A DNA stretch of 64,000 bases from Gaiella occulta (GCF_003351045.1 NZ_QQZY01000008.1:1-64000), one strand, 5' to 3'; positions 4,246-28,279 are shown, counted from the stretch's first letter. Notes: generated by a model not told the origin, from the letters alone. Program-made: numbers and translations.

Positions 4246-4301
4246 TTAGCACCAGCTTTGCAAGCTGGGGGTCGCCGGTTCGAGCCCGGCACGCTCCACC
4301 A
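4246..4301 (+). other. 3' fragment of a tRNA-Ala(TGC) gene; probable attachment-site scar
   Basis: The segment contains an anticodon arm CCAGC-TTTGCAA-GCTGG (anticodon TGC at 4259-4261), a T-arm GCCGG-TTCGAGC-CCGGC, and the acceptor strand ACGCTCC-A-CCA ending at 4301. The matching 5' acceptor strand (GGAGCGT) and D-arm are absent from the preceding 100 bases, so this is not a functional tRNA. The serine recombinase gene on the opposite strand terminates inside it. Site-specific elements often carry the 3' end of a target tRNA as their crossover core, which makes this a likely att site. Confidence 0.75.
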
Positions 4302-6015
4302 TAACTTCGTCTCTCAAACCTAAGGCTCGGGTGAGCCTGGCTTGACCAACACCCTCGAGGACTTGCTCCTCGGGGGTGTCGTTGTTGAGGGAGGCTTCCC
4401 AAAGCTGCCAGTCGAGCTCGCTGGGCTGTTCTCGCGAGAGGGCTGCTTCGCCGAGGTGGATGGCTGCTTGTGTCCGCGCTTTGACCTTGGGGCTGAGCAG
4501 CGTGTTGAAGGGTTCGGCCAGTTCGCTGGTGATGTTGGCGTCCTCATCGACGTAGAGCCGTGCGAAGAAGGCTTGGTTGAGTTGCCGTTTGACGGTTGAG
4601 GTTGCCGAGCGGTAGCTGGCGTGGCAATCGTCGGCGAGGGCGAGTGTGGCTTGGAGATTGATCTGGATAGCGCCGTTGTGGTCGTCGGTTGCTTGGAGGC
4701 GCGCGTCGATCTTGTCGAGCTGGCTTGCGATCCGGTCCTGTTCGCTCTTGAGCAGGTCGAGAGGTACCGCTCCGGCATAGTGGGCTTGGAGGAGTTTTTC
4801 GCGCTCGTCGATCAGCCGGCGGCGGCGCTTCTTCAGCCGGTCGTGTTCGGCGCCTGCTTCGCGCTGGTAGACAGCGAGGTCGTGGCTGAGTGCGCTGTGG
4901 AGCACTCGGCCGACTTTCGGATCAAGCTGGATGGTCTGGTAGTGCTGCTCGACCTTCTCCTCGACCGTCTCGATCAGGACGGCCTTCATCATGCAGTCGT
5001 TACGTTTCTCGTGCCGGCCAGAGCAGACGAAGTAGGGATAGATCTTCCCCGAGCGGCTCTTGGCGTTGCTGACGATCATCCGGGTCTTGCAGTGGCCGCA
5101 GAAGAGGCTGCCCTTGAGATGGTGGTGGTGGACGCGCTCCTTCTCGTGCGCCTGGGTGCGGGTCGCCATGATCTGCTGCACTTGATCCCACGTTTGGCGG
5201 CTGACAAGCGGTGGGTGGCTGCCCGGGTAGAGGACGCCCATGTAACGGACGTAGCCCACGTAGTAGGGGTTGAGGAGCATGTCATTGAAGGTTGTTAGCC
5301 CGAGCGGCACGCCACGTGCAACGGTCGTCAGCCCACGCCTGGTGGCCTCGGCAAGCAACGTTCGGAGTGACCACTCGCCGTTGGCGTAGGCCTCGAACGC
5401 CCACGCGACGAGTGGCGCGCGGACCGGGTCGACTTCGACCGTCCGGATGTCGCGCCCGTTTTCGAACTTGCGCACGTTCAGGTAGCCGATCGGAGCCCTG
5501 CCGGGTGTGCCGCCGGACTGAGCCTTTTGCACCAATCCCTTCATGACTTCGTTGGCGAGGTTGCGGCTGTAGAACTCGGCGATCGAACTCATGATCCCGT
5601 GCAGCAGCATCCCGCTTGGCGTCTCGTCGATGTTTTCGCTGCACGAGACGAGCGTGGTTCCGGCCGCTTTCAAAGCAAGGTTGATCGCGACGTCATCGGC
5701 TCTGCTGCGGGCAAGTCGATCAACCTTGTGGACGATCGCCAGCCCGACTTCGTTCTCGCGTACGTAGGCGAGCATCCGCTGAAGCTCCGGACGGTCGGCG
5801 CTCTTTGCGCTCTCGCCACGGTCGACGAACTCCTCGACGACAACGGCTCCCAGCGAGGTGGCTTTGCGCTTGCAGGCCTCGCGTTGAGCTGGAATCGAGT
5901 AGCCCTCGGCTTCACCGCCTTTTTCGGCTTGCTCTTTCGTCGAGACACGCAGGTAGATGACGGCCTGAGCCATCCCTGGGGAGGTGTTGTCTGTCGCCTG
6001 CTCGGATGCGCTCAT
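4246..6015 (-). CDS. Large serine recombinase (integrase)
   Basis: Integrates and excises the element by serine-mediated strand exchange. The N-terminal resolvase domain shows VIYLRVSTKEQ, with Ser25 the predicted nucleophile. The arginine-rich SADRPELQRML and HKVDRLARSRADD motifs follow. Next are the recombinase domain (about 170-280), a zinc ribbon (SLFCGHCKTRM...YFVCSGRHEKRNDC) and a long coiled coil (about 370-450). Length (589 aa) suits the family. The last residues (ERAGLEPATPSLQSWC) are translated from the antisense of the tRNA-Ala fragment, so the natural C-terminus may differ. The ATG overlaps the upstream gene's stop (ATGA). Confidence 0.93.
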   Translation of the reverse strand: MSASEQATDNTSPGMAQAVIYLRVSTKEQAEKGGEAEGYSIPAQREACKRKATSLGAVVVEEFVDRGESAKSADRPELQRMLAYVRENEVGLAIVHKVDRLARSRADDVAINLALKAAGTTLVSCSENIDETPSGMLLHGIMSSIAEFYSRNLANEVMKGLVQKAQSGGTPGRAPIGYLNVRKFENGRDIRTVEVDPVRAPLVAWAFEAYANGEWSLRTLLAEATRRGLTTVARGVPLGLTTFNDMLLNPYYVGYVRYMGVLYPGSHPPLVSRQTWDQVQQIMATRTQAHEKERVHHHHLKGSLFCGHCKTRMIVSNAKSRSGKIYPYFVCSGRHEKRNDCMMKAVLIETVEEKVEQHYQTIQLDPKVGRVLHSALSHDLAVYQREAGAEHDRLKKRRRRLIDEREKLLQAHYAGAVPLDLLKSEQDRIASQLDKIDARLQATDDHNGAIQINLQATLALADDCHASYRSATSTVKRQLNQAFFARLYVDEDANITSELAEPFNTLLSPKVKARTQAAIHLGEAALSREQPSELDWQLWEASLNNDTPEEQVLEGVGQARLTRALGLRDEVMVERAGLEPATPSLQSWC

Positions 6016-7094: not shown

Positions 7095-7134
7095 GCGCGA
7101 TCTACTCCAGTTACGAACCCATCTTATCACGCTT

Positions 7135-7150
7135 GATGCGCATACGCATC
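7135..7150. promoter_or_regulatory. Palindromic operator upstream of the XRE repressor gene
   Basis: GATGCGCATACGCATC, a perfect 6-bp dyad around CATA. It is identical to 12301-12316 and nearly identical to 12339-12354. It lies upstream of a plausible minus-strand -10 box (TAAGAT, 7126-7121), overlapping where the -35 would be. Confidence 0.75.
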
Positions 7151-7332: not shown

Positions 7333-7704
7333 TTAGGCCTTGAGAGCGTCGATCTTGACCTGGATGTTGGCCTTGCGCTCTGCGGCCGTGTCGCGGAGGT
7401 GCTCGTACTCGGTCTTGGCCTCGTCGACGCGCGTCTTGGCGGCGGCGACTTCGGCGTCGATCGACTCGACTGCCCTGGTGAGGACACTCGTGGCTTGCTC
7501 GATCGGATCGCCGTTCGCCGCCTCGCGCTTGCGCGACCGCGGGGTTGACTGACCGCTGGTGCGGGTGTGGGCGTAGTAGGCGCCGCGCATCGAGTTGAAC
7601 GGCTGTCCGAACTCGTCAGCGACCTGCCGGAAAGCGTCTGCCTTCCGAACGCCCGAGGCGACTAGCGCCTCGACCCGGTCGTACACCTCTTGAGCCTTTG
7701 TCAT
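7333..7704 (-). CDS. Small coiled-coil protein of the integrative element, unknown function
   Basis: A 123-aa protein. The first half (KAQEVYDRVEALVASGVRKADAFRQVADEFGQPFNSMRGAYYAH) looks like a small helix-turn-helix, of the kind that recognises repeated DNA in mobile elements. The second half is a heptad-rich coiled coil (about residues 70-123). A strong AAAGGAGG ribosome site precedes the ATG at 7704. It is the last gene of the leftward transfer operon, about 100 bp below the methyltransferase gene. DNA binding is inferred; no family is recognised. Confidence 0.6.
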   Translation of the reverse strand: MTKAQEVYDRVEALVASGVRKADAFRQVADEFGQPFNSMRGAYYAHTRTSGQSTPRSRKREAANGDPIEQATSVLTRAVESIDAEVAAAKTRVDEAKTEYEHLRDTAAERKANIQVKIDALKA

Positions 7705-7810
7705 GGCTCATGCCTCCTTTCGAGAGGGATGGATGGCTGTGCGGCGGGCAGAACTTCCAGGTCCTCCTGGGTTCCGTCCGCCGGTGGGCCATCAAGCCCA
7801 AGGACGTCGT

Positions 7811-9708: not shown

Positions 9709-9869
9709 GGGGAACCCCATGTGTGTGCATCAGTCGCCGCACGAAAGCGGATGGTTTGCGCCCATTTCCAGGTGAAAGCAATCGTGCGGGTCCACGCGAC
9801 CGGGTAGGCGATCGGTACGCCCACTACAACGGTGGCCAGCGCGGCCGGGTAGCCGACCGGGACGCTCAT
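9705..9869 (-). CDS. Small coupled protein (54 aa) with one hydrophobic segment
   Basis: Starts MSVPVGYPAALATVVVGVP and continues through a hydrophobic stretch (about residues 8-25) to a basic, Trp-containing tail. Its ATG overlaps the stop of the coupling-ATPase gene (9866-9869) and its stop overlaps the next start (9705-9708), so it is embedded in a chain of coupled genes. It may be a single-pass membrane partner of the ATPase. There is no recognised family; support is positional. Confidence 0.6.
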   Translation of the reverse strand: MSVPVGYPAALATVVVGVPIAYPVAWTRTIAFTWKWAQTIRFRAATDAHTWGSP

Positions 9870-16062: not shown

Positions 16063-16965
16063 GTGGGCACACCAGATCGCACTGCTCCGGCCGATGACGT
16101 CGTCCCGCCTCCGCTCGACGAGTTGACAGCGGCCCTCAAACGCGGCATTCGCGTCGGCCTTCCGGTCAAGCCCGACGCGGCACCGGAGGTACTCCTCGAG
16201 CTTCGCGGTGTACGCGCCCGAGCGATCGATGCGGGCCGCTTCCTCAGCCGAGTCAAAGCCCTAAACGGGCTCCTGCATGGATTTCTAACGGGCCTGGGAG
16301 AGGGAGAAGAGGCGCGGGCGCTGCGATGCCTCTTCGCCGTTCATGCAGAGGACCGGGGGACGACTCTCACGCATCGCAGACGGCGCGCCGCTGGCATCTT
16401 GGGCTACAACGACACCCACTTCCGCAAGCACATCGAGCCGCGACTCCTACGAGACTTCGCCTGGCTCCTTCACGAAGACAGCCAGACCTACACGCCCCGA
16501 AGCCGGAAGGCGCCGCCCAAGATCGAGATCTCGGGCGACACGCCGACTCTGACCCCGGGGGAAGTCAACGAGCACGAAGAGCTCGTCTCGCGCATCTGGG
16601 CTCTCGTCTACGAACTCCGTGCGGAACTCATCTGCAAGGCTCGGCTCGAGGCCGAAGGGGATCAAACGGCGCAAGCGGAGGTTGATGACGCTTCCGGCAC
16701 CAGCCTATGGCTCGTCGCCCGGCTCCTCAGCCGGATGCACGACTATCTCGATCGCTACGGCGAACGCATCCTCCACGGTGAAGCCGAGTTCAACGCCGAA
16801 GGCCTCATCCGCCTCGCCGGGTGGAGCTACGAGCTCAGCCCAGAGCAAGCGAAGCACCTGCGGTACATACTCGCCAAGAGCGGCGGTGATCGCGCCAGCT
16901 TCATATCGGAAGCCCGCGCCTACCTACGCGGGGCGCCAACCGAAAGTAGCGAGGTAGACAAATGA
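16063..16965 (+). CDS. Conserved-looking helical protein heading the biosynthetic operon
   Basis: A 300-aa soluble, mainly helical protein. The segment HRRRRAAGILGYNDTHFRKHIEPRLLRDFAWLLHEDSQTY (about residues 104-143) resembles a helix-turn-helix that precedes DNA-binding or sensing domains in actinobacterial proteins. The GTG start at 16063 is tentative; no strong ribosome site is visible. Its stop overlaps the creatininase start (ATGA at 16962-16965), tying it to the biosynthetic operon, although the leftward element genes begin only 97 bases away. It may be a pathway regulator; this is inference. Confidence 0.6.
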   Translation: MGTPDRTAPADDVVPPPLDELTAALKRGIRVGLPVKPDAAPEVLLELRGVRARAIDAGRFLSRVKALNGLLHGFLTGLGEGEEARALRCLFAVHAEDRGTTLTHRRRRAAGILGYNDTHFRKHIEPRLLRDFAWLLHEDSQTYTPRSRKAPPKIEISGDTPTLTPGEVNEHEELVSRIWALVYELRAELICKARLEAEGDQTAQAEVDDASGTSLWLVARLLSRMHDYLDRYGERILHGEAEFNAEGLIRLAGWSYELSPEQAKHLRYILAKSGGDRASFISEARAYLRGAPTESSEVDK

Positions 16966-17753
16966 GTCGTGATTCGCGCGATCAACAGAGCGGGCACGTG
17001 AGCAAACTAGAAGATCTTTCGACCAATGAGGTCGAGCAAATTGCACATCGCGGGCGCGTGATTCTCCTCCTACCCGTTGGTTCCACCGAGCAGCACGGAC
17101 CGCATCTTCCGCTTGCTACGGATACGATTCTTGCGGAGACGTACGCAGATAGATTCGCAACGGCGTATCGGCAGGACTTCGACTGGTTCGTACTTCCGTC
17201 TATTGCGTACGGGTACTGCCCGGAACACTCCGGCTTTTCCGGAACTGTTGGTGTAGCCGGTACAGATCTTCTTCAAACAGTGGTTGCTGTTTGTCAATCA
17301 GCAAGCGCATCGTGCGCCGCAACGGGCGTGGTTATCGTGAACGGCCATGGCGGCAATCGACCCATCCTTGAAATTGCGTGCCGAACATTGGCGGATCAGA
17401 ATGATGTGAGGACGCTTGTAGTCCATCCATCCGCTCTCGCGGCAGTTACGGGGCAGCCAGGGATTCCAGAAGTACACGGCGGCCGTTCCGAGACATCGGT
17501 AATGCTGGCGACGCGACCCGACCTCGTTTACCTCGACAGGTGGGGGAAGGATGACCAACTCGACATAGATGCCGAGTTCATCAGGAAGTTCGTCACCAAC
17601 CGTGGAATTGACGCGCCGTGGCTGACGCATGATCCGAGAGTAGGGCGTTCCGGCGTGATCGGTGATCCAACTGGTGCAGACGCAGATATAGGACGGTCGA
17701 TTCTTACGGCAGCAGTGAACAGTTTTCGCGCAGTCGTGGATTGGTTTTCGTGA
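16962..17753 (+). CDS. Creatininase-family amidohydrolase (MftE/ArfB-like)
   Basis: A metal-dependent amidohydrolase of the creatininase fold, related to creatininase, the peptidase MftE of mycofactocin synthesis and archaeal formamide hydrolases. Metal ligands are visible in LLPVGSTEQHGPHLPLATDT (Glu, His and Asp) and VVIVNGHGGNRP; a further Glu lies in EVHGGRSETSVML. Length (263 aa) is typical. The ATG overlaps the preceding stop and the gene's own stop overlaps the next GTG. In a biosynthetic operon it would hydrolyse an amide or formamide of an intermediate; the substrate is unknown. Confidence 0.88.
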   Translation: MSRDSRDQQSGHVSKLEDLSTNEVEQIAHRGRVILLLPVGSTEQHGPHLPLATDTILAETYADRFATAYRQDFDWFVLPSIAYGYCPEHSGFSGTVGVAGTDLLQTVVAVCQSASASCAATGVVIVNGHGGNRPILEIACRTLADQNDVRTLVVHPSALAAVTGQPGIPEVHGGRSETSVMLATRPDLVYLDRWGKDDQLDIDAEFIRKFVTNRGIDAPWLTHDPRVGRSGVIGDPTGADADIGRSILTAAVNSFRAVVDWFS

Positions 17754-19732
17754 CGGCGGCGTCCGGCGAAGTCCGCAATTTCGCCGCGATGCTTGACTAT
17801 GTTGCGCTCTGCCTTCTTCACCTCGTTGACAATCCGTCGCGCGAGCGGCCGCTGGGTTCGGAGGATGTAAAGCCACGTGTCTCGGGTCACTGGGGCTGTG
17901 TCCCCGGTATCACCCGACTCCTTGCGTCATTGACCGACGCGTCTGCAACGCTGGCAGTCACTCCCCGAGTGGTGCTAGGTACAGGACACGCGGGCGCAGC
18001 ATGGCTCGCATGGTCTTTCTACTGCGGTGCTCTCGCTGCGCGAGGCTACCCGCCGACGCGGGACGGGCTCGTCACGTTGTGTCGCGATTTCGGGACGGTT
18101 ATGCCGACCGAGATCAGCGCCGACTGGCCCGGCGTCGCCTGGGCCGGCGGAGCCCTTGGGCATGCGCTGGGAGTGGCACAGGGTATTTCGGTCGCCTCTC
18201 CGGAGCCGGTCGTTGTGATTATCGGAGATGGAGAATTTGAGACTGGCTCGACTCTCGCCAGCCTCTTGGCGCCTATTGAAGCGCCTCGAGCACGCCAGCC
18301 TCTCGTGCTCGTGAACTTGAATGCTCAACGGATGACCGGGTCCAGCATCCTTGGTCGTTTAACCCCAGGTGAACGGAGGGCTCTAGTTGAACCGTTGGGG
18401 TGGGCGACCACGGAGGTCACCTCAAGCGATCTTGACGGCCTGAGTCGGCAGATCGTGGCTGGCCTCAGCCACGCAGATCGTCCGCATCTCATCATGCTGC
18501 GGTCAGAGAAGGGAGAAGGCGCGCCGCCGCTCCCCGATGGAACTGTGACTGTGGGAACACCGAGGGTGCACAAGGCTCCGATGCGCCGGCTGTCGACGGC
18601 AGCGGCTGTTGAGTGGCTCGACGGGTGGCTTGAGCTCTACCAGCCGCAGACCCGGTTCAACGCTGATGGACGACTGAGGGTGCAGTCACGTCTTGCCGAC
18701 CACGCGCGGCTGATTGTCGAAAAGAGCGGCCCTACCTTGGTGATGGGTGATGCTGGCAACGCAGGCTCGTCGAAACTCGCTATGTCCAACCGCAGCGGCA
18801 AGCGCAGCGACGCGAGCACGATATCGCACGGTCTAGTGGAGATCGCGGCGGCCAAAGCGGGACTCGTGGTGGCTTGCCCGGACGAGCTGGAGTCGAATCA
18901 ATTAGAGGCGCTCCGACAAACTGGACACAACGTCTACGAGCAGCTGTCAGAAGAACAGTGTGTTACATATGCGATGGGCGCAACGCTCGCTGGGCAACCA
19001 GCCTGGTTCATCTCGTACATAGGTTTCATGCTCTACGCGAACCCAATCCTCAATCAGCATTTTTTGCAGATCTCGTCGCGGCGCCAGCGGGACCAAAACG
19101 CGGTTCAACTCGCGCGGTTGACAATTATTTTGACCTCTTTAGGTTGGTCCAACGTCTACTCGCATCGAGACGACTCGGGTCTAGCAATGTTGACTTCTCT
19201 TCCGCCAGGCCTATGTTCTTTCCTGTTGCCGCATGATGCGCATGATATCTATGACTCCCTTGATCAATCAGGGACACCGGTCGAGTGCGTCGTCTACGAT
19301 AAATGGGAGCCGCCTTCGCCGCCGGCCGATGACATAGACCACTTGGGCGTAAAGCATTGGTATCTTGGCGATGCATCTGGCTCCGGAAGTGACATCGGTC
19401 TGATCGTCTTGGGTAACTCCCATACACGGACGGCCCTCGAGGCGGCACTTGTTCTTTCGCAGAAAACCCCAGTCCATGTCTCTGCTCCGACGCGTCTTGT
19501 TCTTGCGGAGAAAGGACTACAGGAGGCGGCCACCAACTCGATTGTGGTTTCGTCGTTTTCGAGAGCCATTACCGAGTCGATGCTTCATTGGATCCCGATC
19601 GAATTGCCGAGTCAGCCTCTAATGCGGGTCCTCGTAAACTCTCAGGATGCTGTGACAGCCGAGGCAGTGCGCCGCGCGTCACGATGCCGGGTGAGTGACC
19701 TCGTTACTGCCGGCGAGCAGCTAATTGGGTGA
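17750..19732 (+). CDS. Phosphoketolase-like thiamine diphosphate enzyme
   Basis: Carries the hallmark order of D-xylulose-5-P/fructose-6-P phosphoketolases: GHWGCVPG (residues 47-54), GTGHAGAAWLA (77-87), PTEISADWPGVAWAGGALGHALGVAQG and the ThDP-Mg motif GDGEFETG (159-166), then LVNLNAQRMTG. Middle and C-terminal transketolase-like domains follow, with the catalytic-type Glu in VYEQLSEEQCVTYAMG. At about 660 aa it is clearly shorter than canonical phosphoketolases (near 790-800), and segments after residue 200 have diverged, so the donor substrate may differ. GTG 17750 overlaps the previous stop (GTGA). It probably makes an acyl or ketol fragment for the pathway. Confidence 0.82.
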   Translation: MTAASGEVRNFAAMLDYVALCLLHLVDNPSRERPLGSEDVKPRVSGHWGCVPGITRLLASLTDASATLAVTPRVVLGTGHAGAAWLAWSFYCGALAARGYPPTRDGLVTLCRDFGTVMPTEISADWPGVAWAGGALGHALGVAQGISVASPEPVVVIIGDGEFETGSTLASLLAPIEAPRARQPLVLVNLNAQRMTGSSILGRLTPGERRALVEPLGWATTEVTSSDLDGLSRQIVAGLSHADRPHLIMLRSEKGEGAPPLPDGTVTVGTPRVHKAPMRRLSTAAAVEWLDGWLELYQPQTRFNADGRLRVQSRLADHARLIVEKSGPTLVMGDAGNAGSSKLAMSNRSGKRSDASTISHGLVEIAAAKAGLVVACPDELESNQLEALRQTGHNVYEQLSEEQCVTYAMGATLAGQPAWFISYIGFMLYANPILNQHFLQISSRRQRDQNAVQLARLTIILTSLGWSNVYSHRDDSGLAMLTSLPPGLCSFLLPHDAHDIYDSLDQSGTPVECVVYDKWEPPSPPADDIDHLGVKHWYLGDASGSGSDIGLIVLGNSHTRTALEAALVLSQKTPVHVSAPTRLVLAEKGLQEAATNSIVVSSFSRAITESMLHWIPIELPSQPLMRVLVNSQDAVTAEAVRRASRCRVSDLVTAGEQLIG

Positions 19733-20808
19733 AATTGCTAGAATTGGTACTTGGAGAGCTGAGGTATTCGAGGGGAGAGCCGAGGTTGAGCGCCGACGGC
19801 CGAGACGGCAGTCTGATCAGATTGAACTTGTATGGCCTTCGGTCGCCTTCGTACGGAGGCCGTGCTCGGCTGCACCTCACGCTTATTGATGACGAAGAAG
19901 CGCGCGAGTGGCGTCTCATCCTGCCCACCGGGCAGGAGAACAGTCCTTTTGAACTGCGCGACGGCGAGCTTTGCGACGATGGGCTTCCGATCGGGACGGC
20001 GTGTGAAGTCGAGCATGACGACGCCAAGCTCGGCTACTTCCGTAACGGCCTGAAGAGCGTCACGCTCAATACGAATCGGAGGTCGCTTTGTACGGGCTGC
20101 GTGTTTTGTCCAAATACCGGCCTAGAAGGGAACGACCCAGTTCTGACAGACCTGGAGCGCTACTTGTCAGCATGGGTCGACAGTACGCTCACCAGTCACC
20201 AGCTTGCTTCGCTGTCGGGCGTTACCGACGTGACCCTTTCTACAGGTTGCTTTGGTGAAGAAGACGCGGCTGTCAGGCATATGGGCCACGTGCGGCGCAT
20301 TCTCTCCACCTACGGCTTTCGCGGGCGCCTCGGAATCCTGAGCTCGGTCATACGTACGCGCTCCGGGTTCAACGCTCTGAACGACGCAGCGGGACCAGCG
20401 GCAGTCATTCTCACGCTTGAGTGCGTGAACCGGCGCGCGTTGATCTTGAAGCGCACGAAGGCGGACCTCAGTGTGACCGACGCAGTCGAGGTTCTCGACA
20501 ATGGGCGTCTTGCCGGCGTGGATACCGGTGTAACGCTTGTCGTTGGGCTCGATTCAATCGAGGCAGTAACCGAATGGCTCCGACGCGCTGCATCGACGCT
20601 CACGATGTTTCCGAACCTGCAGATTTTTCAAGCGCACGGTCCCTTCATGGCTGCCTTCCGCCATCCGGGAGCCGAGACTCACGAGTTCTTCTTGAAGGCT
20701 CGGCGGTCATTCGAGAACGTCTTGAAGCAGTATCCGACCCGGCCCGACCTATGGTCGAACTACCGACCCCTCTGGTACTACGAGTACGCGGGTCAGCCCG
20801 TCGTATGA
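19729..20808 (+). CDS. Radical-SAM-like protein with CX2CX2C cluster motif
   Basis: Residues 121-127 read C-TG-C-VF-C, within NTNRRSLCTGCVFCPN, giving CX2CX2C instead of the canonical CX3CX2C of radical SAM enzymes. The downstream layout is that of a partial TIM barrel: VTDVTLSTGCFGEEDAAVRHMGHVRRIL in place of the GGE motif, then VILTLECVNRRALILKR, GVDTGVTLVVGLDS and a C-terminal IFQAHGPFM. Length is 359 aa. Start (GTGA) and stop (ATGA) overlap the neighbouring genes. I infer a 4Fe-4S radical enzyme; the unusual Cys spacing could instead mean an atypical subfamily or another metal site. Confidence 0.75.
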   Translation: MKLLELVLGELRYSRGEPRLSADGRDGSLIRLNLYGLRSPSYGGRARLHLTLIDDEEAREWRLILPTGQENSPFELRDGELCDDGLPIGTACEVEHDDAKLGYFRNGLKSVTLNTNRRSLCTGCVFCPNTGLEGNDPVLTDLERYLSAWVDSTLTSHQLASLSGVTDVTLSTGCFGEEDAAVRHMGHVRRILSTYGFRGRLGILSSVIRTRSGFNALNDAAGPAAVILTLECVNRRALILKRTKADLSVTDAVEVLDNGRLAGVDTGVTLVVGLDSIEAVTEWLRRAASTLTMFPNLQIFQAHGPFMAAFRHPGAETHEFFLKARRSFENVLKQYPTRPDLWSNYRPLWYYEYAGQPVV

Positions 20809-21281
20809 CCCACGTGTCTGTTCAAGTTCCTAGCGAGGCCAATAAACAACGCGCAGCGATCGCGGTGTCACCGTATGGGCGCTTCCTTGTTCTGCCTGCT
20901 CCGAACGTCGCTCGAGATTCCGCTGCAGTCGTGCGCGTCGTCATCGATGGAGCAAGTCGGAAAGCGCTGTATCTTGCGCAGCATCAGGGAGCCGTCCTGG
21001 CCGGCGATGATGTAAACGCTGCCCTCTTGAATCGCCGCATGGGAGAAATCGTCGATGTGGTGATCGAACACTCTCGGCCGATCGCGCCTGTGGGGTTTCC
21101 GCAAAGTGAGGCGCTGCTCTTCCGGAATCTAAGTGGTGTGCTATCCGACGAGCAGTTCCGGCATGCGATCCTGTTCGTTCGGGAGGCCGAGCATCCTGAC
21201 GTGCGCGACCAGAGGTTGACGATGTTGGCGCAATTGGTGAGCGGACGGGCCAAGACGGATGTCGTCGCGGGAGCCAGATAG
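20805..21281 (+). CDS. Unknown 158-aa protein of the biosynthetic operon
   Basis: Begins MTHVSVQVPSEANKQRA at an ATG overlapping the radical-SAM stop. It looks like a compact beta-rich N-terminal half (AAIAVSPYGRFLVLPAPN...VVRVVIDGASRKALYLAQ) and a helical C-terminal half. There are no cysteines, no signal peptide and no TM segment. No family recognised. Placement directly after the radical-SAM gene could make it a substrate carrier or a recognition partner; its size and lack of a leader/core layout argue against a RiPP precursor. The stop overlaps the next GTG as TAGTG. Confidence 0.65.
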   Translation: MTHVSVQVPSEANKQRAAIAVSPYGRFLVLPAPNVARDSAAVVRVVIDGASRKALYLAQHQGAVLAGDDVNAALLNRRMGEIVDVVIEHSRPIAPVGFPQSEALLFRNLSGVLSDEQFRHAILFVREAEHPDVRDQRLTMLAQLVSGRAKTDVVAGAR

Positions 21282-22054
21282 TGCAGAGCCACTCTGCGCC
21301 GCACCGAGCCACGGCTGAGCAGAAGGCAGCCTTCGCTCGCACCGGCGCAGTGGCCGTGCGCAAGGCGGTGCCGCGCGCGCAGATTGACCGCATCCACAGG
21401 GATCTTCTCGAGTGGCTTGTCCAAGCGCCAGATGATCCCGATGCGATAGCTGCGTACACGAGACGAACGTTCGCGGAGGACATGTCGGAGCGACCTGAAA
21501 TCCTCGCCCTGTTTTACGATAGTCCGTTAGTCGATCTGGCATCGTCCCTAGTCGAGCCGCTTGAGCTAGAGAATGTCGAGCGGGCGCAGGTTCAAGTCAG
21601 GCTTCCCGAACGCGCCGGCGGCGCTGCCCAACCAGAGAAGCCGGTACACGTCGATGGTCTTTGGTGCGGCCATCTTCCGTCGGGGACGCTGAACTCTTTT
21701 AGCATGCTCGTTGGAATAGCGGCCTCACAGGTCGCGACGTCATCTGGACCGCTCCGCTTCATCCCGGGTGGGCACCTCCTGGTGGCCGACTGGATACGCA
21801 CACATGGAGATGCTCCACCCGGAGATGGGTACGAAGCTCCAGAGCCTATTCGGACCAAGCTCTCCCAGAACTTCGTCGCCGAGCCGGGCGATGCGATCAT
21901 CCTTCACTATCTTTGCCCACATGCCGCCGGCTTGAACCGGTTGCCTAATCCAAGAGTGATGATCTATTTTAGACTGAAAGTTGTCGATCACGACGGGAGA
22001 GTTTTATTGGCTGACCCCTTTGCTGATTTCCCAAGCTTGCGGCGTAATGGTTAA
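21281..22054 (+). CDS. Phytanoyl-CoA dioxygenase (PhyH) family oxygenase
   Basis: A predicted Fe(II)/2-oxoglutarate-dependent oxygenase. The metal triad is visible as His and Asp in KPVHVDGLWCGH and the distal His in ILHYLCPHAAGLN. The basic residue for 2-oxoglutarate is likely the Arg in NPRVMIYFR. GPLRFIPGGHLL is typical of the family between these motifs. Length 257 aa. It would hydroxylate, desaturate or cyclise an intermediate of the pathway. The GTG start shares its G with the preceding TAG stop. Confidence 0.85.
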   Translation: MQSHSAPHRATAEQKAAFARTGAVAVRKAVPRAQIDRIHRDLLEWLVQAPDDPDAIAAYTRRTFAEDMSERPEILALFYDSPLVDLASSLVEPLELENVERAQVQVRLPERAGGAAQPEKPVHVDGLWCGHLPSGTLNSFSMLVGIAASQVATSSGPLRFIPGGHLLVADWIRTHGDAPPGDGYEAPEPIRTKLSQNFVAEPGDAIILHYLCPHAAGLNRLPNPRVMIYFRLKVVDHDGRVLLADPFADFPSLRRNG

Positions 22055-22694
22055 AACGCTGTCGCAGGCTGAAATCGCCGAGGCAGCCCAGGCGCTGGCT
22101 GATGATGAACTAGTAGTCGCCCCGACGGCTCGGTGGTATATGGTTTGCGGTCGCGCTCGCTGCTCGACCACAGCGTCTCGCATCTTCCGCGCGAAGGCGA
22201 GACCAAACAGCAAGGTTCTCATGCTGTGCCTCGGCCAGCCGGATTGGGCCGAAGAACTCTTTCTGCTCACCGATGAGGCGCGGGTCCTCGCAGCCCATTT
22301 TTGGCCCGGAGATCTACTGCTAAAGCTGCGGTGGCGATCACAGAGTCAGAGTGCTCTTCATCCTGGTGTCGGTGAGCCTATCGCGCTCGTCGGCGTGCCG
22401 AACGATCCCCTCGGAGACCTCGCAAGGGCGCTAGGCGAGCCGCTCGTGGCGTCTAGCGCCAACGTGTCAGGCGACCTCGACGCGCAAGGCACGGAACCCG
22501 CCATATCCGTGGATGAAGCCAGACGGTTTGTTGAGTTGTCTAGCGAACCGATTCGCGTCGTCGTTGATGGCGGCATCGCGCCACAGGCAAGGCATTTGAC
22601 TGTCGTGGATGCCTCTAGAGAGCGCGCCAGTCTAGAGCGAGAGGGTACTCTTCACCCGAGAGCCGTCGCGGCAGCGCTCGGACGTGCGCTCTAG
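22047..22694 (+). CDS. Sua5/YciO/YrdC-family enzyme, pathway-specific paralogue
   Basis: The YrdC fold normally makes threonylcarbamoyl-AMP from Thr, bicarbonate and ATP; related domains supply carbamoyl-adenylate in HypF and antibiotic carbamoyltransferases. Catalytic hallmarks are kept: KARPNSKVLML (KxR) and VASSANVSGD (SxN). The usual N-terminal PTETVYGL loop has become PTARWYMVCG, suggesting a changed acceptor site. At 215 aa it is YrdC-like in length, without the Sua5 C-terminal domain. ATG 22047 overlaps the PhyH stop by 8 bases; the longer frame is rejected. A carbamoylation or carboxyl-activation role in the pathway is inferred. Confidence 0.8.
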   Translation: MVKTLSQAEIAEAAQALADDELVVAPTARWYMVCGRARCSTTASRIFRAKARPNSKVLMLCLGQPDWAEELFLLTDEARVLAAHFWPGDLLLKLRWRSQSQSALHPGVGEPIALVGVPNDPLGDLARALGEPLVASSANVSGDLDAQGTEPAISVDEARRFVELSSEPIRVVVDGGIAPQARHLTVVDASRERASLEREGTLHPRAVAAALGRAL

Positions 22695-23862
22695 GAGGCC
22701 AGAAGCCTCGGGCGAGATCCTCGCCGAGGTCGCGCGTCTCGTGCGCCAGGCCATCGGCCGGCGGCTTGTGGTGCTCATAGGGCCATCTGCACAGAGCCGC
22801 GCGATTGCGCTCTACTTTGCGGCATTCACAGGCGTTGTCGGGATGCGTGATGCTGGGACGGGAGTCGGTGGGCACACAGAGCTCGTTTCCGAGATCTTGG
22901 CACGCCTGGACGCCTGCCTCAGAGACCCCGGTGAGCGCTTGTTGCTACCGCTCGCGAGGCTCGGAAGTCCGGATCAAGTGGTTATCTACGCTGGCTCGTA
23001 TCCAACGGTTGCGAAATGCGGCCTCTACACCGTAATCGGGTCTCGACCAACCGTGCCTGAAGAGATTGAATCGAAAGCAGCTCAATTCACCATCCTGCCG
23101 CCGCACACGATTCCCAATCATCAACGGTGTCCCGCGTTAGTCGCGAACCGTCGTTGCGCGGAGATGGTGAAGAAGGGATCAGTCGTTGCACACGCGGCAA
23201 ACATCGGCGATGTCGCAACGATGGCGACAGCGGCCGCTCGCTTTGTCGCTGCGGACAGCTCCCCTGAGCAGTGCGAGCGCATTTTGAGCTCACTCAATGC
23301 TCGGGGAGATATTTTCCTATGCCAGTTCGTTCCTGGGACGCCTGTAACCGTCTACGGGTACGTGACCGATCGCAGCGTCGTCGTATCAGGAGTGTACGAG
23401 GCACTCAACGAGGTTGATCTCACCACAGGTGTGATCTATGCGGGAGGAGTAAGAGGCGCCGGTGTCCGCGACTCCGACGCAGCCCTCATACAGCATGTCG
23501 TCTCATTCGCGATACGGCATTCGGCAGGCGTGCTGAACTACGCCGGCGCGTTTTGCATCGACGGGGTGTGGGCGCAGGGGCAGTTCGCCGTACTCGATCT
23601 GAACCTTCGGTCGTGCGCCGGAGCGCGAAGGTTACTTGGCGACATAGGCATCGATCTGCCGGCCCCCGTTGTCGACCTCGCTCTGCGCGAGAGTCAAGCA
23701 GACGACAGCCATGACCTCATGATTGCCTTGGCGACTGAAGCAAGAAGGCATTGGCCTAGCCCGCACGATCTGACCCTCTGGGAGAGATCTGAACCGATCA
23801 CGGCTTCCGAAGAGTGGACGGCCGCGCCGGGCCGTGTCGAACTCGCAAGAATCGTCAGATGA
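22684..23862 (+). CDS. ATP-grasp-like ligase
   Basis: The central and C-terminal parts resemble an ATP-grasp core. A middle segment ends in IFLCQFVPGTPVTVYGYVTDRSVVVSGVYEALN, like the strand that carries the substrate loop, and the C-terminal YAGAFCIDGVWAQGQFAVLDLNLRSCAG holds the D-x-N-x-R metal and phosphate motif. The N-terminal 100 residues form a Rossmann-like pre-grasp domain (RRLVVLIGPSAQSRAIALYFAAF). Such enzymes join a carboxylate to an amine or similar nucleophile through an acyl phosphate. GTG 22684 overlaps the preceding stop by 11 bases. Length 392 aa. Confidence 0.7.
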   Translation: MRSRRPEASGEILAEVARLVRQAIGRRLVVLIGPSAQSRAIALYFAAFTGVVGMRDAGTGVGGHTELVSEILARLDACLRDPGERLLLPLARLGSPDQVVIYAGSYPTVAKCGLYTVIGSRPTVPEEIESKAAQFTILPPHTIPNHQRCPALVANRRCAEMVKKGSVVAHAANIGDVATMATAAARFVAADSSPEQCERILSSLNARGDIFLCQFVPGTPVTVYGYVTDRSVVVSGVYEALNEVDLTTGVIYAGGVRGAGVRDSDAALIQHVVSFAIRHSAGVLNYAGAFCIDGVWAQGQFAVLDLNLRSCAGARRLLGDIGIDLPAPVVDLALRESQADDSHDLMIALATEARRHWPSPHDLTLWERSEPITASEEWTAAPGRVELARIVR

Positions 23863-24872
23863 TGAACGTCTACGGGGCCTCTTCGCTCACCGACATTGAG
23901 CTTCTCGACCTTGGCTCCAGTTGCTGCGGCACCGGGCGAGTCTTCACGTTTCGGGTCGTGCTCGCAAGCGGCGAACGGGCGTCGTCGTCTTCTTTTTGGT
24001 TTAGGAATGATGAGAGCCTGACTAGGGCTGTCGCCCCGGTTGCCGCCCGCGCCCTCGCGGCGCAATCTCTGCACCATCAACGAACGACAGAAGTCGCTTT
24101 CACGGGCACGCAGGCGGTCTTGGCGGCTCATCTCGAGTCCGCTTGGCTCTTCGCGGTAGCCGCAGAGCGCGGTGTACCGCTCCGAGTGCTTCTGGGAAGC
24201 CGATCCCGGAACAAAGTCAAGTTCTATGTGTCGCTGCTGACCGCAGATGTCATCGACGATCACGCGGCGTCTGCCAAGATCTCAGCGGGCTGCAGCCTCG
24301 TAAAGATCTCGTACGGCGCAAAACTTACGAGTTCGACTCCCTTCGCTGTTGATTGTCACGGGACGGCCTCGTATCAGGAAGCGCTGGACCGCTACGGCAG
24401 GATGTCCGGACTCAGCTGGGTCGAGGAACCTCGCGACGCCGACGAAGTCGGGGACCCGTGTGTGCCGATTGTCACCGGCGAGTTCGTCACGGACTGGGAG
24501 CGGGAGCTCGACTCGCCTCGCACGCAGTCGTCGACCACTCGGTGGAGGCAGCTCGAGCCAGCCCGATGCGGGGTGCTGCAAGCCCATTCTGCTGCAAAGA
24601 CGCTGACGCGGGCGGGCGCGCCAGTTCTGTTTCACGGCCATCAGCCTTACGTTGCGGCACACCTCGCAGCAGCCACCTCTGGGGTGACATACGTCGAGAT
24701 CAACGCAGCGTGGATGCTTGATCGGTTCAGAACAGCGTGGTGTCGCGGAATCTCTCTGTCTGCCGCAATCCATGACCTTTGCGACGCGTTAGATCGTCGT
24801 GGCGGCGGGCCGGCGGTCGATATGGGCGACGGCTCCGCCGCAGAGGTTGTCTTTACTGCCTCGAAGCAATGA
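23859..24872 (+). CDS. Divergent enolase-superfamily protein
   Basis: A muconate-lactonising/mandelate-racemase-like layout: an N-terminal capping domain (about residues 1-115), then LVKISYGAKL at the second-strand lysine site, FAVDCHGTASYQEALDRYGRMSGLSWVEEP with the metal-binding Asp and Glu, and VTGEFVTD as the third acidic site. The usual KxK pair is reduced to K-x-S, so only one of the standard bases is present. The C-terminal lysine site is not obvious, and VLFHGHQP may provide His instead. It might dehydrate, epimerise or cycloisomerise a carboxylate. Start and stop overlap neighbours (ATGA both sides). Confidence 0.68.
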   Translation: MMNVYGASSLTDIELLDLGSSCCGTGRVFTFRVVLASGERASSSSFWFRNDESLTRAVAPVAARALAAQSLHHQRTTEVAFTGTQAVLAAHLESAWLFAVAAERGVPLRVLLGSRSRNKVKFYVSLLTADVIDDHAASAKISAGCSLVKISYGAKLTSSTPFAVDCHGTASYQEALDRYGRMSGLSWVEEPRDADEVGDPCVPIVTGEFVTDWERELDSPRTQSSTTRWRQLEPARCGVLQAHSAAKTLTRAGAPVLFHGHQPYVAAHLAAATSGVTYVEINAAWMLDRFRTAWCRGISLSAAIHDLCDALDRRGGGPAVDMGDGSAAEVVFTASKQ

Positions 24873-25483
24873 CAGTCGTGACGTCCTTCGATGTGGGTGG
24901 AACGCTGATCCGGGCCTCGACCTCGTGCGCCGAGGCGATCTGCACCCGATTCCAGATCAGAGAGGAGTCTCGTAGGGCAGCAATTCGAACGCTTCTAAGA
25001 TCATCGCCGCTTGACCAAAGAGCGCTGCGCGACCTGGCGGATCTCTCAGGTGTTGCCGCGCTTGCCGTTCAACGATGCCTCGATGAGTATCTCCCCGCCT
25101 TTGAGTGGCAGGATGGAGCTCACGAGGCCCTTGGCCGCGCAAGAAGCCGCGGTCGAGTAGTGACCCTATCGAACGTTTCTCAAATCGATGACTCGACCAC
25201 CGGATGGATCGGCTTCCTTATCGACGCATCATATTCCTCGTGGCGGACAGGATACGTGAAACCTGATCGGAGAGCGTATGAAAACCTCATCGACACGGAG
25301 GCGGTACCAGCATCTGATATTATTCACATCGGAGACGACTGGGAAGCCGATGTCGCCGCACCATTGGCTGTTGGTATTCGAGCGGTGTATATCGGAATCG
25401 TTCCTCCTCGCGCTGATCTCGGTGGCGTCGAGACAGTCGACTCCGTGTTGCACGCCCTCGACGTAATCGAGAGCACAACGTAG
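24869..25483 (+). CDS. HAD-superfamily hydrolase, atypical motif I
   Basis: Motif I is SFDVGGTLI: the nucleophilic Asp is present, but the usual second Asp (DxD) is Gly. Motif II is RVVTLSN, motif III Lys in GYVKPDRRAYENL, and motif IV IIHIGDDWEADVAAPLAVG, as in class IA haloacid-dehalogenase-like phosphatases. A helical cap occupies about residues 20-85. It would fit removal of a phosphate from a phosphorylated intermediate, consistent with a phosphoketolase step upstream, although the motif I change may alter chemistry. ATG 24869 overlaps the previous stop; 204 aa. Confidence 0.8.
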   Translation: MTVVTSFDVGGTLIRASTSCAEAICTRFQIREESRRAAIRTLLRSSPLDQRALRDLADLSGVAALAVQRCLDEYLPAFEWQDGAHEALGRARSRGRVVTLSNVSQIDDSTTGWIGFLIDASYSSWRTGYVKPDRRAYENLIDTEAVPASDIIHIGDDWEADVAAPLAVGIRAVYIGIVPPRADLGGVETVDSVLHALDVIESTT

Positions 25484-25492
25484 AATGGACGC

Positions 25493-26308
25493 ATGACGCA
25501 GGGATACTTCGAGGGCCTCGCAGAGCGGTATGACCGCTATCGCCCTGGCGTGCCTCCGGAAGCTTGCGCGGTTCTTAGCAGTTTCGTCGAGCCTGAAGCG
25601 GATCGGCCGGCGCGTCTACTCGACCTAGGCACTGGCACCGGGCAGGTGATCTTTGATTGTGGGAGTACATTCGGGACTCTTGTTGGCGTTGAGCTCGATC
25701 CCAAGATGGTAGAGATTGCTCGTAATAAGGCACGTAACCATCCTGAGGTTTCTGGCAAGAGGGTTAAGTGGGTTGTGGCATCAGCAGAAGAGTACCTTGC
25801 GAACACGGACGATCTCTTTGATCTCGTAACCATCTGTCGGGCGTTTCATTGGATAGATCAAGCAGGCGTCCTCCAACTCCTTGATCGCGTTGTGGCCCCT
25901 CGTGGGAAGGTCGTGGTTTGCGGTGATGGGAGCCTTTGGAACGCGCCAGATGAGTGGGCGAAGGCGATAAGAGCTACCGTTCAGGAGTTTTTGGGTGAAG
26001 AGCGACGCGCTCGATCGTCCAAGTTTACTCACCATGATCGGCCGTACATCGAGATCATGCAGGAGTCGCCTTTTTCCGACGCGCAACGCCTCGAAGTGCG
26101 TGGAGTTCGTGAGTGGACGATTGAACAGATCATTGGTTACCTATTCTCGACCACCTTCGCATCGCCAGAGCTCTTCGGAAGTCGAGTTGGCGGATTCGAG
26201 AGGAGGATCCGCGAGAGGCTTACGGAATATCAGGGTAGTGGCAGCCTCAAGGAGAGTTACGAGTTCACTCTGGTTGTTGGACAGCGCCCGCATCGCAGCA
26301 CCCGCTGA
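25493..26308 (+). CDS. Class I SAM-dependent methyltransferase
   Basis: N-terminal YFEGLAERYDRYRPGVPPE is typical of the Methyltransf_11/UbiE-like group. SAM-binding motif I is ARLLDLGTGTGQVIFDCG, motif II GTLVGVELDPKMVEIAR, and post-motif DLVTICRAFHWID resembles small-molecule methyltransferases of natural-product clusters. Length 271 aa. It begins 9 bases after the HAD gene, the only real gap in the run from 16962, and is the last gene of the operon. Probably O-, N- or C-methylation of the product; an alternative is modification of a carboxylate for release. Confidence 0.85.
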   Translation: MTQGYFEGLAERYDRYRPGVPPEACAVLSSFVEPEADRPARLLDLGTGTGQVIFDCGSTFGTLVGVELDPKMVEIARNKARNHPEVSGKRVKWVVASAEEYLANTDDLFDLVTICRAFHWIDQAGVLQLLDRVVAPRGKVVVCGDGSLWNAPDEWAKAIRATVQEFLGEERRARSSKFTHHDRPYIEIMQESPFSDAQRLEVRGVREWTIEQIIGYLFSTTFASPELFGSRVGGFERRIRERLTEYQGSGSLKESYEFTLVVGQRPHRSTR

Positions 26309-26548: not shown

Positions 26549-28275
26549 GAGCGCGGGTCAGTAAGCGGGTCCATCCGGGCGGGGTCCTAGCCTCGTTCTT
26601 GGCGTCGAGTCAAGGAGGGGGCGATGGCGGCAGCGGCGGCGGTAGAAGCGGTTGAGGGGCAGGAGCGGCTGGTCGAGGTCGAGCCGTCGGCGGTTGTCGA
26701 GGAGCGGCGGCCGGGCGGCGAGGAGAAGACGTTTCGGCCCTACGACCTCGAGCAGGTGTTGTTGCTCTCGCCCGTCCTCTCGGACTGGCTGCCGGAGGGG
26801 CATCTCGCGCACTTCGTCTCGGACCTGGTCGAGTCGGGCGCACTCGATCTGTCGGCGATCTACGACTCGTACGAGGAGGAGCGCGGGTATCCGCCCTACG
26901 ACCCGCGGCTGATGGTGAAGCTGCTCCTGTACGGCTACGCGAACGCGGTCGTGTCGTCGCGCAAGCTGGAGCGGGCGACCTACGAGGACGTGGCGGTGCG
27001 GATGCTGTGCGCCGATCAGCATCCCGATTACCGCTCGATCGCCCGCTTCCGTAAGCGGCATCTGGAGGCGCTCGGCGGGCTGTTCGTGCAGGCGCTGCGG
27101 CTGTGTCGGCAGGCGAGCCTGGTCGGGCTGGGCGCGCTTGCCCTGGACGGGACGAAGCTGCGCGCGAACGCCTCGCGGCACAAGGCGATGAGCTATGAGC
27201 GGATGGTGAAGGCGGAGACGCAGCTTGAGGCGGAGATCGCCGCCATCCGCGCCAATGTGCGGGCGCTCTTGGAGGAGGCGGAGGCGGTCGACGCCGCCGA
27301 GGACGAGCGCTTCGGGCCCGACCGCCGCGGCGACGAGCTGCCCGAGGAGCTGCGCCGGCGCGAGCAGCGGCTCGAGCGGATCCGGGAGGCCAAGCAGGCG
27401 CTCGAGGCCGAGGCGGCCGAGCACGAGCGGGCGCGCCGGGCCGAGCTGAAAGCCGAAGGCAAGAAGCCGCGGCGACCGCCGAACGGGCGTGACCCGTTCA
27501 AGCCCAAGCCGGGCGCGCAGCGCAACTTCACCGATCCCGAGTCGCGGATCATGAAGACCGCCGACGGCGCTTTCCACCAGTGTTACAGCGGCCAGGCGGT
27601 CGTTGATTCGACCGCGCAGGTGATCGTCGCGGCCGAACTCTCGCACGAGGCGCCGGACGCGCGCCAGCTCGAGCCGGCGCTCGACCAGCTCGCCGACAAC
27701 CTGGAGGCGATCGGCGTCGAGCTACCCGCGGGTACGACGCTTGCCGCCGATGCCGGCTACTTCTCCGAGGACAACGTCCGTATCACCACAGAGCGTGGGC
27801 TCGATCCGCACATCGCCACCGGCCGCTTCAAACACTCCGAGCCGCCGCCGGCGCCGCGCGGCCCGATCCCCAAGAACGCGACGCCCAAGCAGCGGATGGC
27901 GCGCAAGCTGAAAACGAAGAACGGCCGCGCCGTCTACAGCCGCCGCAAAGCGATCGTCGAGCCGGTCTTCGGCCAGATCGACACGGTGCAGAACGGGCGC
28001 AAGCTGCTCTTACGCGGCAAGCAGGCCGCCCGCGAGCAGTGGCGCTTCACCTGCGCCGTCCACAACCTGCTCAAGCTCCACCGGGCCGGCGGGCTCGCAC
28101 TCATCGATCAAGCGCCGCAAGCACGCACGGGCGTGGACGGAGCTCCCGAGAGTGCGCGGAAGGCAGCCGGTCCGATCCTTCGCCGCGCGGCGCAGTCCGC
28201 GCGCCGCTGGCTCACAGCCACCTGCGACGCTCCGATGCCGATGCTCCCGCCGCCGCTCGTTACGGACCCGCGCTC
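26549..28275 (+). mobile_element. IS1182-like insertion sequence with CTAG target duplication
   Basis: A single-gene element of about 1.73 kb. The ends are inverted: GAGCGCGGGTCAGTAA at the left (26549 on) and TTACGGACCCGCGCTC at the right (ending 28275), one mismatch in 16. The tetranucleotide CTAG flanks both ends (26545-26548 and 28276-28279) and is taken as the target duplication. Ends and gene are intact, so the insertion is probably recent. Confidence 0.85.
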
Positions 28276-28279
28276 CTAG
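26624..28279 (+). CDS. IS1182-family transposase
   Basis: A DDE transposase. The N-terminal DUF772-like region reads LPEGHLAHFVSDLVESGALDLSAIYDSYEEERGYPPYDPRLMVKLLLYGYANAVVSSRKLE, with LALDGTKLRANAS (first Asp), a charged coiled-coil insert (about 190-280), LAADAGYFSEDN (second Asp) and RKAIVEPVFGQIDTVQNGRKLLLRGKQAAREQWRFTCAVHNLLKL (catalytic Glu). Length 551 aa. Its TAG stop (28277-28279) is not within the element but in the CTAG target duplication, so termination depends on the insertion site. Confidence 0.92.
   Translation: MAAAAAVEAVEGQERLVEVEPSAVVEERRPGGEEKTFRPYDLEQVLLLSPVLSDWLPEGHLAHFVSDLVESGALDLSAIYDSYEEERGYPPYDPRLMVKLLLYGYANAVVSSRKLERATYEDVAVRMLCADQHPDYRSIARFRKRHLEALGGLFVQALRLCRQASLVGLGALALDGTKLRANASRHKAMSYERMVKAETQLEAEIAAIRANVRALLEEAEAVDAAEDERFGPDRRGDELPEELRRREQRLERIREAKQALEAEAAEHERARRAELKAEGKKPRRPPNGRDPFKPKPGAQRNFTDPESRIMKTADGAFHQCYSGQAVVDSTAQVIVAAELSHEAPDARQLEPALDQLADNLEAIGVELPAGTTLAADAGYFSEDNVRITTERGLDPHIATGRFKHSEPPPAPRGPIPKNATPKQRMARKLKTKNGRAVYSRRKAIVEPVFGQIDTVQNGRKLLLRGKQAAREQWRFTCAVHNLLKLHRAGGLALIDQAPQARTGVDGAPESARKAAGPILRRAAQSARRWLTATCDAPMPMLPPPLVTDPRS

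What the first reader, a model, noticed from the sequence alone, without database searches (positions are those of the whole stretch)
16962..26308. Unrecognised ten- to eleven-gene biosynthetic operon with end-to-end translational coupling
Creatininase-type amidohydrolase, phosphoketolase-like ThDP enzyme, CX2CX2C radical-SAM-like protein, unknown 158-aa protein, PhyH dioxygenase, YrdC-type enzyme, ATP-grasp-like ligase, enolase-superfamily protein, HAD hydrolase and methyltransferase follow each other. Start/stop overlaps occur at 16962, 17750, 19729, 20805, 21281, 22047, 22684, 23859 and 24869. I know no pathway with this set. The logic suggests sugar-phosphate cleavage, radical or oxidative remodelling, carbamoyl or carboxyl activation, ligation, dephosphorylation and methylation: a small, polar specialised metabolite. 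The proposed chemistry is inference.
Basis: partly seen in the sequence, partly recalled or inferred. Interest (0 to 1): 0.85.

Follow-up and report, generated by a model that had tools for sequence, protein, structure and literature searches.

The report
Mobile phosphoketolase–radical-SAM biosynthetic gene cluster
Ten overlapping genes on a mobile DNA element encode what looks like a complete, undescribed pathway for making a small molecule; the same gene set recurs in dozens of actinobacteria and, in one case, in an archaeon, and its product is unknown.

Summary
Ten genes (16962-26308, +) run end to end with nine start/stop overlaps and a 9-nt last gap. GC is about 0.60 against 0.67-0.69 beside it. 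They sit on an integrative/conjugative-type island (serine recombinase, T4SS coupling protein, R-M genes).

One scan of 84,980 species genomes with the radical-SAM profile, plus plasmids, gave 59 further loci. Over the 60 loci (window included), HMMs find radical SAM in 60, enolase-like 59, the '158-aa unknown' 57, methyltransferase 57, HAD 56, phosphoketolase-like 54, PhyH 37, YrdC 36, creatininase 25, ATP-grasp 6. In 296 Streptomyces genomes the radical SAM and 158-aa families co-occur (13 shared of 15 and 14; P about 1e-19). The genes co-diverge and are under purifying selection. An archaeal contig carries all ten.

Most enzymes are derived paralogues: a phosphoketolase whose H142-equivalent is often aromatic, a mandelate-racemase-type enzyme, a YrdC with PTxRWYM, a HAD with DxGxT, an OmdA/YdeI-like 158-aa protein. 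No described pathway was found in the open literature; MIBiG was unavailable. Product and exact chemistry remain inference.

The parts
16962..17753 (+). Creatininase-family amidohydrolase, metal-site motifs intact (accessory: 25 of 60 loci)
   Evidence: PF02633 4.5e-55; closest NCBIfam model MftE at 154 bits, below its 172-bit cut-off; TEQHGPHLPL..TD and NGHGGN conserved in the family
17750..19732 (+). Phosphoketolase-like ThDP enzyme (core)
   Evidence: Family profile hits phosphoketolase 8io8, E 2e-152; H64/H97/H320/H553 equivalents and GDG conserved in (nearly) all 53 aligned; H142 equivalent is Trp here and 0/24 His in creatininase-bearing loci
19729..20808 (+). Radical SAM enzyme, CX2CX2C (core)
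   Evidence: C121/C124/C127 and C174 invariant in 34 sequences; model pLDDT 85, lipoyl synthase fold Z 15.2
20805..21281 (+). 158-aa OmdA/YdeI-like protein (core; 57 of 60 loci; fused to HAD or GGDEF domains elsewhere)
   Evidence: PF13376 OmdA hits 15/36 family members, best 2e-5; N-terminal barrel like 2d9r, Z 8.2, rmsd 2.3, 77 aligned
21281..22054 (+). PhyH-type Fe/2-oxoglutarate oxygenase (accessory)
   Evidence: PF05721 6e-11; HxD...H and the C-terminal Arg conserved in 36/36
22047..22694 (+). YrdC/TsaC-like protein with PTxRWYM signature (accessory)
   Evidence: PF01300 1e-19; TIGR00057 at 77 bits, below its 123-bit cut-off; KxR motif kept in 34/34
22684..23862 (+). ATP-grasp-like ligase (accessory; 6 of 60 loci)
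   Evidence: PF02655 best 0.0012 in 3/6 members; terminal ExNxR motif present in relatives, LDLNLR in the window
23859..24872 (+). Enolase-superfamily enzyme of the mandelate-racemase group (core)
   Evidence: Profile hit 3tj4 1e-44; metal ligands D165/E189/E208, H259 and E280 invariant, D233 nearly invariant in 22 sequences
24869..25483 (+). HAD-superfamily protein with DxGxT motif I (core)
   Evidence: PF00702 2.5e-9; Asp 50/54 and Gly 52/54 at the motif I positions
25493..26308 (+). Class I SAM-dependent methyltransferase (core)
   Evidence: DLGTGTG motif; homologue in 57 of 60 loci
16063..16965 (+). Upstream ORF overlapping the first gene by 4 nt; no family, not conserved with the cluster; membership doubtful
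4246..6015 (-). Large serine recombinase of the host island
   Evidence: PF00239 5.6e-33 with PF07508
9866..12166 (-). Type IV secretion coupling protein (VirD4/TrwB type) of the host island
   Evidence: PF02534, PF10412
29458..33587 (+). Type III-like restriction-modification pair next to the operon
   Evidence: PF01555 2e-47 and PF04851 2e-19

Best explanation
The ten genes are most likely one transcriptional unit encoding a dedicated pathway for a small, polar specialised metabolite, carried as cargo on an integrative/conjugative element. Shown: gene set, conservation, patchy distribution on mobile DNA, catalytic residues. Inferred: six core enzymes build a scaffold. The phosphoketolase-like ThDP enzyme cleaves or transfers a two-carbon unit of a ketose (phosphate). 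The mandelate-racemase-like enzyme abstracts the proton alpha to a carboxylate (dehydration, epimerisation or cyclisation of a sugar-acid-like intermediate). The radical SAM enzyme functionalises an unactivated C-H or C-C bond. The HAD protein does a hydrolytic step that need not be dephosphorylation. The methyltransferase methylates. The OmdA-like protein binds or carries an intermediate, or gives self-protection. Optional enzymes (PhyH hydroxylation; YrdC carbamoyl-adenylate-type activation; creatininase cyclic-amide opening or closing; ATP-grasp amide ligation) tailor the scaffold, giving a family of related products.
For: Same set in 59 further loci with shuffled gene order but persistent clustering. 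Reverse test independent of the first scan: radical SAM full-length in 15 and the 158-aa family full-length in 14 of 296 Streptomyces genomes, 13 shared (P 9e-20). Pairwise distances of the families correlate, r 0.60-0.95, 0/200 permutations as high. dN/dS about 0.1-0.35 for nearly all genes in pairs with enough divergence. Catalytic motifs intact in phosphoketolase-like, enolase-like, PhyH and creatininase proteins. No other phosphoketolase was found in the host genome, so the enzyme is not a second copy beside a housekeeping one. An amino-acid permease-type gene lies near about ten of the loci.
Against: No product, expression or biochemistry. No obvious transporter or resistance gene inside the window operon. 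Most loci were found through the radical SAM query, so counts for the other genes are conditional on it. Functions of derived paralogues cannot be read from parent families.
Confidence: 0.75

Rival explanations
1. A catabolic pathway: uptake and breakdown of an unusual sugar acid (mandelate-racemase-type dehydratase, phosphoketolase, HAD), carried on mobile elements as a niche function.
For: Enolase-superfamily dehydratases and phosphoketolases are typical of sugar-acid catabolism (established knowledge); amino-acid permease near some loci.
Against: Radical SAM, PhyH, methyltransferase, YrdC and ATP-grasp are anabolic/tailoring types; no kinase, aldolase or dedicated sugar transporter was seen as a conserved member of the operons; the HAD lacks the phosphatase motif.
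Confidence: 0.1
2. A mobile-element conflict or maintenance system: the operon makes a nucleotide-like or other small-molecule effector against phages or competing elements.
For: Located on plasmids, ICE-like islands and beside R-M genes in both the window and the archaeon; GGDEF-type domains with GGDE motif in the plasmid-type loci.
Against: No PADLOC match beyond generic methyltransferases and a weak DpdE hit at E 0.023; many copies are on chromosomal-scale contigs; no toxin or effector domain recognised.
Confidence: 0.1
3. The cluster is already characterised for a known product under names or sources not searchable here (MIBiG, patents, closed journals).
For: Many carriers are well-studied Streptomyces; the paper library is open-access only.
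Against: Nine full-text searches with combinations of the enzyme names found no such cluster; plasmid annotations call the genes hypothetical or by superfamily only.
Confidence: 0.15
4. The operon matures a ribosomal peptide: MftE-like creatininase as peptidase, radical SAM and ATP-grasp as modifiers.
For: The creatininase scores close to the MftE cut-off; one Streptomyces subgroup lies beside FxLD-lanthipeptide-type genes.
Against: No conserved precursor ORF was seen among the clustered genes (the ORF caller used a 70-aa floor, so a short one could be missed); creatininase is in only 25 of 60 loci; phosphoketolase- and enolase-like enzymes do not fit peptide maturation.
Confidence: 0.04

Closest known systems
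Xylulose-5-P/fructose-6-P phosphoketolase (XFP)
   Same: Profile match over about 670 residues, E 2e-152; catalytic His/Glu and ThDP motifs kept
   Different: Shorter at the C-terminus; far below NCBIfam phosphoketolase cut-offs; H142 equivalent aromatic in 23 of 24 creatininase-bearing loci (Trp in the window) and mixed elsewhere; R442 equivalent Gln and H548 equivalent Ser in the window
Mandelate racemase-group acid-sugar dehydratases (enolase superfamily)
   Same: Metal ligands, Asp-His dyad and terminal Glu
   Different: The window copy is only 17-24% identical to its own relatives in other clusters; none characterised
Lipoyl synthase / biotin synthase / NosL (radical SAM)
   Same: Partial TIM barrel, Z 15.2, rmsd 3.6, 231 aligned to 4u0o
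   Different: CX2CX2C rather than CX3CX2C; no auxiliary-cluster cysteine motif of lipoyl synthase seen; no full-length sequence relative in PDB
TsaC/Sua5 (YrdC) threonylcarbamoyl-AMP synthase
   Same: Fold family and KxR motif
   Different: PTDTxYGL (recalled) is replaced by PTxRWYM in the family; below the TIGR00057 cut-off
Mycofactocin creatininase MftE
   Same: 154 bits to the MftE model, metal motifs
   Different: Below the 172-bit cut-off; no other mycofactocin genes recognised in the operon
OmdA/YdeI (PF13376) proteins
   Same: C-terminal domain matches in 15/36 relatives; N-terminal barrel like 2d9r
   Different: No Pfam match in the window copy; built into a biosynthetic operon

Membership tests
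Phosphoketolase (EC 4.1.2.9/4.1.2.22) | Catalytic and ThDP residues (H64, H97, H320, E479, H553, GDG) | tested here: met
   51-53 of 53 conserved; residue numbers recalled from Bifidobacterium XFP
Phosphoketolase (EC 4.1.2.9/4.1.2.22) | H142 in the active site | tested here: not met
   Trp in the window; His in 0/24 creatininase-bearing loci, 10/11 of PhyH-only loci, 7/18 of the rest
Phosphoketolase (EC 4.1.2.9/4.1.2.22) | Curated NCBIfam cut-off | tested here: not met
   180 bits vs 777 (NF003616); the other phosphoketolase models also far below cut-off
Radical SAM superfamily | Partial TIM barrel with three cluster cysteines | tested here: met
   C121/C124/C127 invariant; fold match; PF04055 in 3/6 relatives
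Lipoyl synthase | CX3CX2C plus auxiliary cluster CX4CX5C (recalled) | tested here: not met
   CX2CX2C, no such N-terminal cysteine motif
Mandelate racemase group of the enolase superfamily | Three metal carboxylates, Asp-His dyad, barrel Lys | tested here: met
   D165, E189, E208, H259 invariant and D233 nearly so; Lys nearly invariant, probably misaligned but present in the window
L-threonylcarbamoyladenylate synthase | TIGR00057 cut-off and PTDTxYGL motif (motif recalled) | tested here: not met
   77 vs 123 bits; PTARWYM in the window
Mycofactocin MftE | Score above the TIGR03964 cut-off | tested here: not met
   154 vs 172 bits
HAD phosphatase | DxDx(T/V) motif I | tested here: not met
   DVGGT; Gly at the second Asp in 52/54
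OmdA/YdeI (PF13376) | Match to the Pfam model | tested here: inconclusive
   15/36 relatives match at E up to 5, best 2e-5; window copy no match
ATP-grasp | ATP-grasp domain model and Mg-binding ExN | tested here: inconclusive
   3/6 relatives, best 0.0012; window has DxN instead of ExN
Any characterised biosynthetic gene cluster | Same core genes in a cluster with known product | not testable with these tools
   MIBiG not held; open-literature searches negative

The most novel reading that the evidence does not exclude
A new class of natural-product pathway in which a repurposed phosphoketolase, a radical SAM enzyme and a mandelate-racemase-type enzyme jointly build a previously unknown scaffold, spread between actinobacteria and archaea on conjugative elements, with clade-specific tailoring modules giving a family of products.
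Probability: 0.55. Interest if true: 0.82.

Novelty: categorically new. Interest (0 to 1): 0.72.

Why it matters
Phosphoketolase is a central-carbon enzyme, and I know of no natural-product pathway built on one. A six-gene core that recurs with exchangeable tailoring genes is a handle for discovering a new compound family (about 5% of the Streptomyces species sampled carry a full-length radical SAM gene of this family), several new enzyme reactions, and a case of a biosynthetic pathway shared across the bacteria-archaea boundary on mobile elements. The 'categorically new' rating concerns the pathway family and would fall to 'new member of a known kind' if a curated cluster matched.

Tried and rejected
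Hydantocidin (a carbamoyl-plus-creatininase logic came to mind): no gene-cluster paper found, dropped. Phage origin: no PHROGs match beyond one YrdC and generic methyltransferase hits, no viral contigs. Known defence system: PADLOC gave nothing convincing. GTP-cyclohydrolase-III/ArfB logic (GGDEF-like plus creatininase): the two gene types were seen together only in L006, so not supported. Contamination of the archaeal MAG: its 258-kb contig carries A-type ATP synthase subunit genes with an intein and other archaeal-type genes, so the locus is probably genuinely archaeal, as a GC-poorer insert. A matching genus-wide scan with the phosphoketolase profile failed twice on the server. Fold search: the absence of other families from the lists was not used as evidence.

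Full report
Observation. The GC content of 16-26 kb is 0.59-0.62 against 0.68-0.69 just upstream and 0.67-0.68 just downstream, which suggests acquisition. The flanks hold a large serine recombinase, a T4SS coupling protein, DNA methyltransferases and a type III-like R-M pair, and an IS-type transposase follows directly at 26624-28279, so the operon looks like cargo of an integrative/conjugative-type island. None of 100 searched relatives of the host carries it; one other genome in 396 of its phylum gave a distant hit, on a small low-GC contig.

Distribution. Plasmid searches gave eight records in Streptomyces, Nocardia and Mycobacterium, and the neighbourhoods read show the same families in shuffled order. 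A profile scan of 84,980 species genomes gave 54 loci in Streptomyces, Nocardia, Actinoplanes, Salinispora, Plantactinospora, Saccharopolyspora, Geodermatophilus, Actinomadura, Nocardiopsis, Streptacidiphilus, Actinacidiphila, Actinophytocola and one thaumarchaeal MAG. HMM searches over six-frame translations of the 59 loci plus the window found radical SAM 60, enolase-like 59, 158-aa family 57, methyltransferase 57, HAD 56, phosphoketolase-like 54, PhyH 37, YrdC 36, creatininase 25, ATP-grasp 6. The radical SAM count is by construction; the others are conditional on it. Several missing genes are at contig ends.

Architectures. Class A: rSAM-XFP-ENO-158-HAD-MT-creatininase-PhyH-(ATP-grasp)-YrdC. 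Class B: rSAM-ENO-158-HAD-MT-PhyH-YrdC-XFP, in Streptomyces, several next to FxLD-lanthipeptide-type genes. Class C: rSAM-ENO-HAD-GGDEF-158-XFP-MT, on plasmids and in Nocardia, Actinomadura and some Streptomyces, where the 158-aa domain is frequently fused to a GGDEF domain with an intact GGDE motif. The window and the archaeal locus L006 share all ten genes and the block creatininase-XFP-rSAM-158-PhyH; the radical SAM proteins of the two are each other's closest (46%), although for several other genes L006 is closer to class A loci.

Co-occurrence tested in the reverse direction. In 296 evenly drawn Streptomyces genomes, full-length radical SAM was in 15 and full-length 158-aa family in 14; 13 genomes have both, on the same contig and strand a few kb apart, hypergeometric P about 9e-20 (this treats species as independent). 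Five further genomes hold only short radical SAM fragments, consistent with decay. Pairwise divergence of the families is correlated (r 0.60-0.95; none of 200 permutations as high; one pair, MT-YrdC, could not be computed; shared ancestry of the host genomes contributes). dN/dS in pairs with enough divergence is about 0.1-0.35 with few exceptions.

Archaeal copy. The L006 contig (258 kb) carries A-type ATP synthase subunits with an intein, other archaeal-type genes, a XerA-type recombinase-like gene near tRNA genes, a CedB/VirB4-like ATPase and a C5 DNA methyltransferase with a restriction enzyme. The cluster region is at 0.50-0.51 GC against 0.59-0.60 in two other stretches. So in both domains the cluster sits in a transfer-type island with R-M genes.

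Enzymes. Phosphoketolase-like: profile hit to 8io8 at E 2e-152. Equivalents of H64, H97, H320, E479, H553, S440, Y501, N549 and K605 are conserved (51-53 of 53), but the H142 equivalent is aromatic in 23 of 24 creatininase-bearing loci (Trp in the window), and the R442 and H548 equivalents are Gln and Ser in the window (numbering recalled). So ThDP chemistry is probably kept and substrate or outcome changed. No other phosphoketolase was found in the host genome. Enolase-like: mandelate-racemase group with the catalytic positions kept, implying proton abstraction next to a carboxylate. Radical SAM: confident model, lipoyl/biotin synthase-type barrel, non-canonical CX2CX2C, invariant fourth Cys174. 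PhyH: facial triad and Arg intact. Creatininase: metal motifs intact. YrdC: KxR kept, but PTxRWYM replaces the TsaC signature. HAD: DxGxT. ATP-grasp-like: weak evidence. 158-aa: OmdA/YdeI-like.

Mechanism. Shown: the genes form one conserved, mobile, selected unit of mostly intact but derived enzymes. Inferred: a six-enzyme core builds a carboxylated, ketose-derived scaffold, and accessory enzymes hydroxylate, carbamoylate or carboxylate, ring-open or ring-close, and amidate it. I put about 0.75 on a biosynthetic pathway for a specialised metabolite, and no more than about 0.3 on the sugar-derived scaffold in particular.

Known or not. Nine searches of 5.4 million open papers found no such cluster. 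Curated NCBIfam models either do not match or match below cut-off, and Pfam gives superfamily-level names only. MIBiG, patents and subscription papers could not be searched; this is the main risk to the novelty claim.

Noticed in passing
L002, L003, L045, L048 and fused forms (e.g. L001:17872-19035); L006:15427-16326: GGDEF-domain proteins with intact GGDE motif are encoded inside or beside class C operons, often fused to the 158-aa domain; the archaeal operon ends with a separate GGDEF protein, unusual for archaea.
   Followed up: partly
L038, L042, L043, L046, L047, L058 upstream of the radical SAM gene: Class B clusters lie beside LanC-like, lantibiotic-dehydratase-C/PCMT (FxLD-type), NUDIX, VanY-like and ABC transporter genes.
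   Followed up: partly
L065 (low-GC 3.7-kb contig in a MAG of the window's phylum): A distant radical SAM relative (CHGCKFC) next to a methyltransferase, opposite a ThDP decarboxylase pair that by eye resembles sulfopyruvate/phosphonopyruvate decarboxylase; probably from another organism.
   Followed up: partly
L003:21835-23935, L045:17597-18934: Nocardia versions carry one or two additional radical SAM genes where others have PhyH.
   Followed up: no
genomes G166, G176, G234, G353, G360: Several Streptomyces genomes keep only fragments of the radical SAM gene, suggesting repeated gain and decay.
   Followed up: no
L064:888-4217 and 6705-11216: The archaeal contig has intein-interrupted ATP synthase subunit A and ribonucleotide reductase genes.
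   Followed up: no
window 26624-28279: IS-type transposase (DUF772/DDE_Tnp_1) directly downstream of the operon.
   Followed up: no
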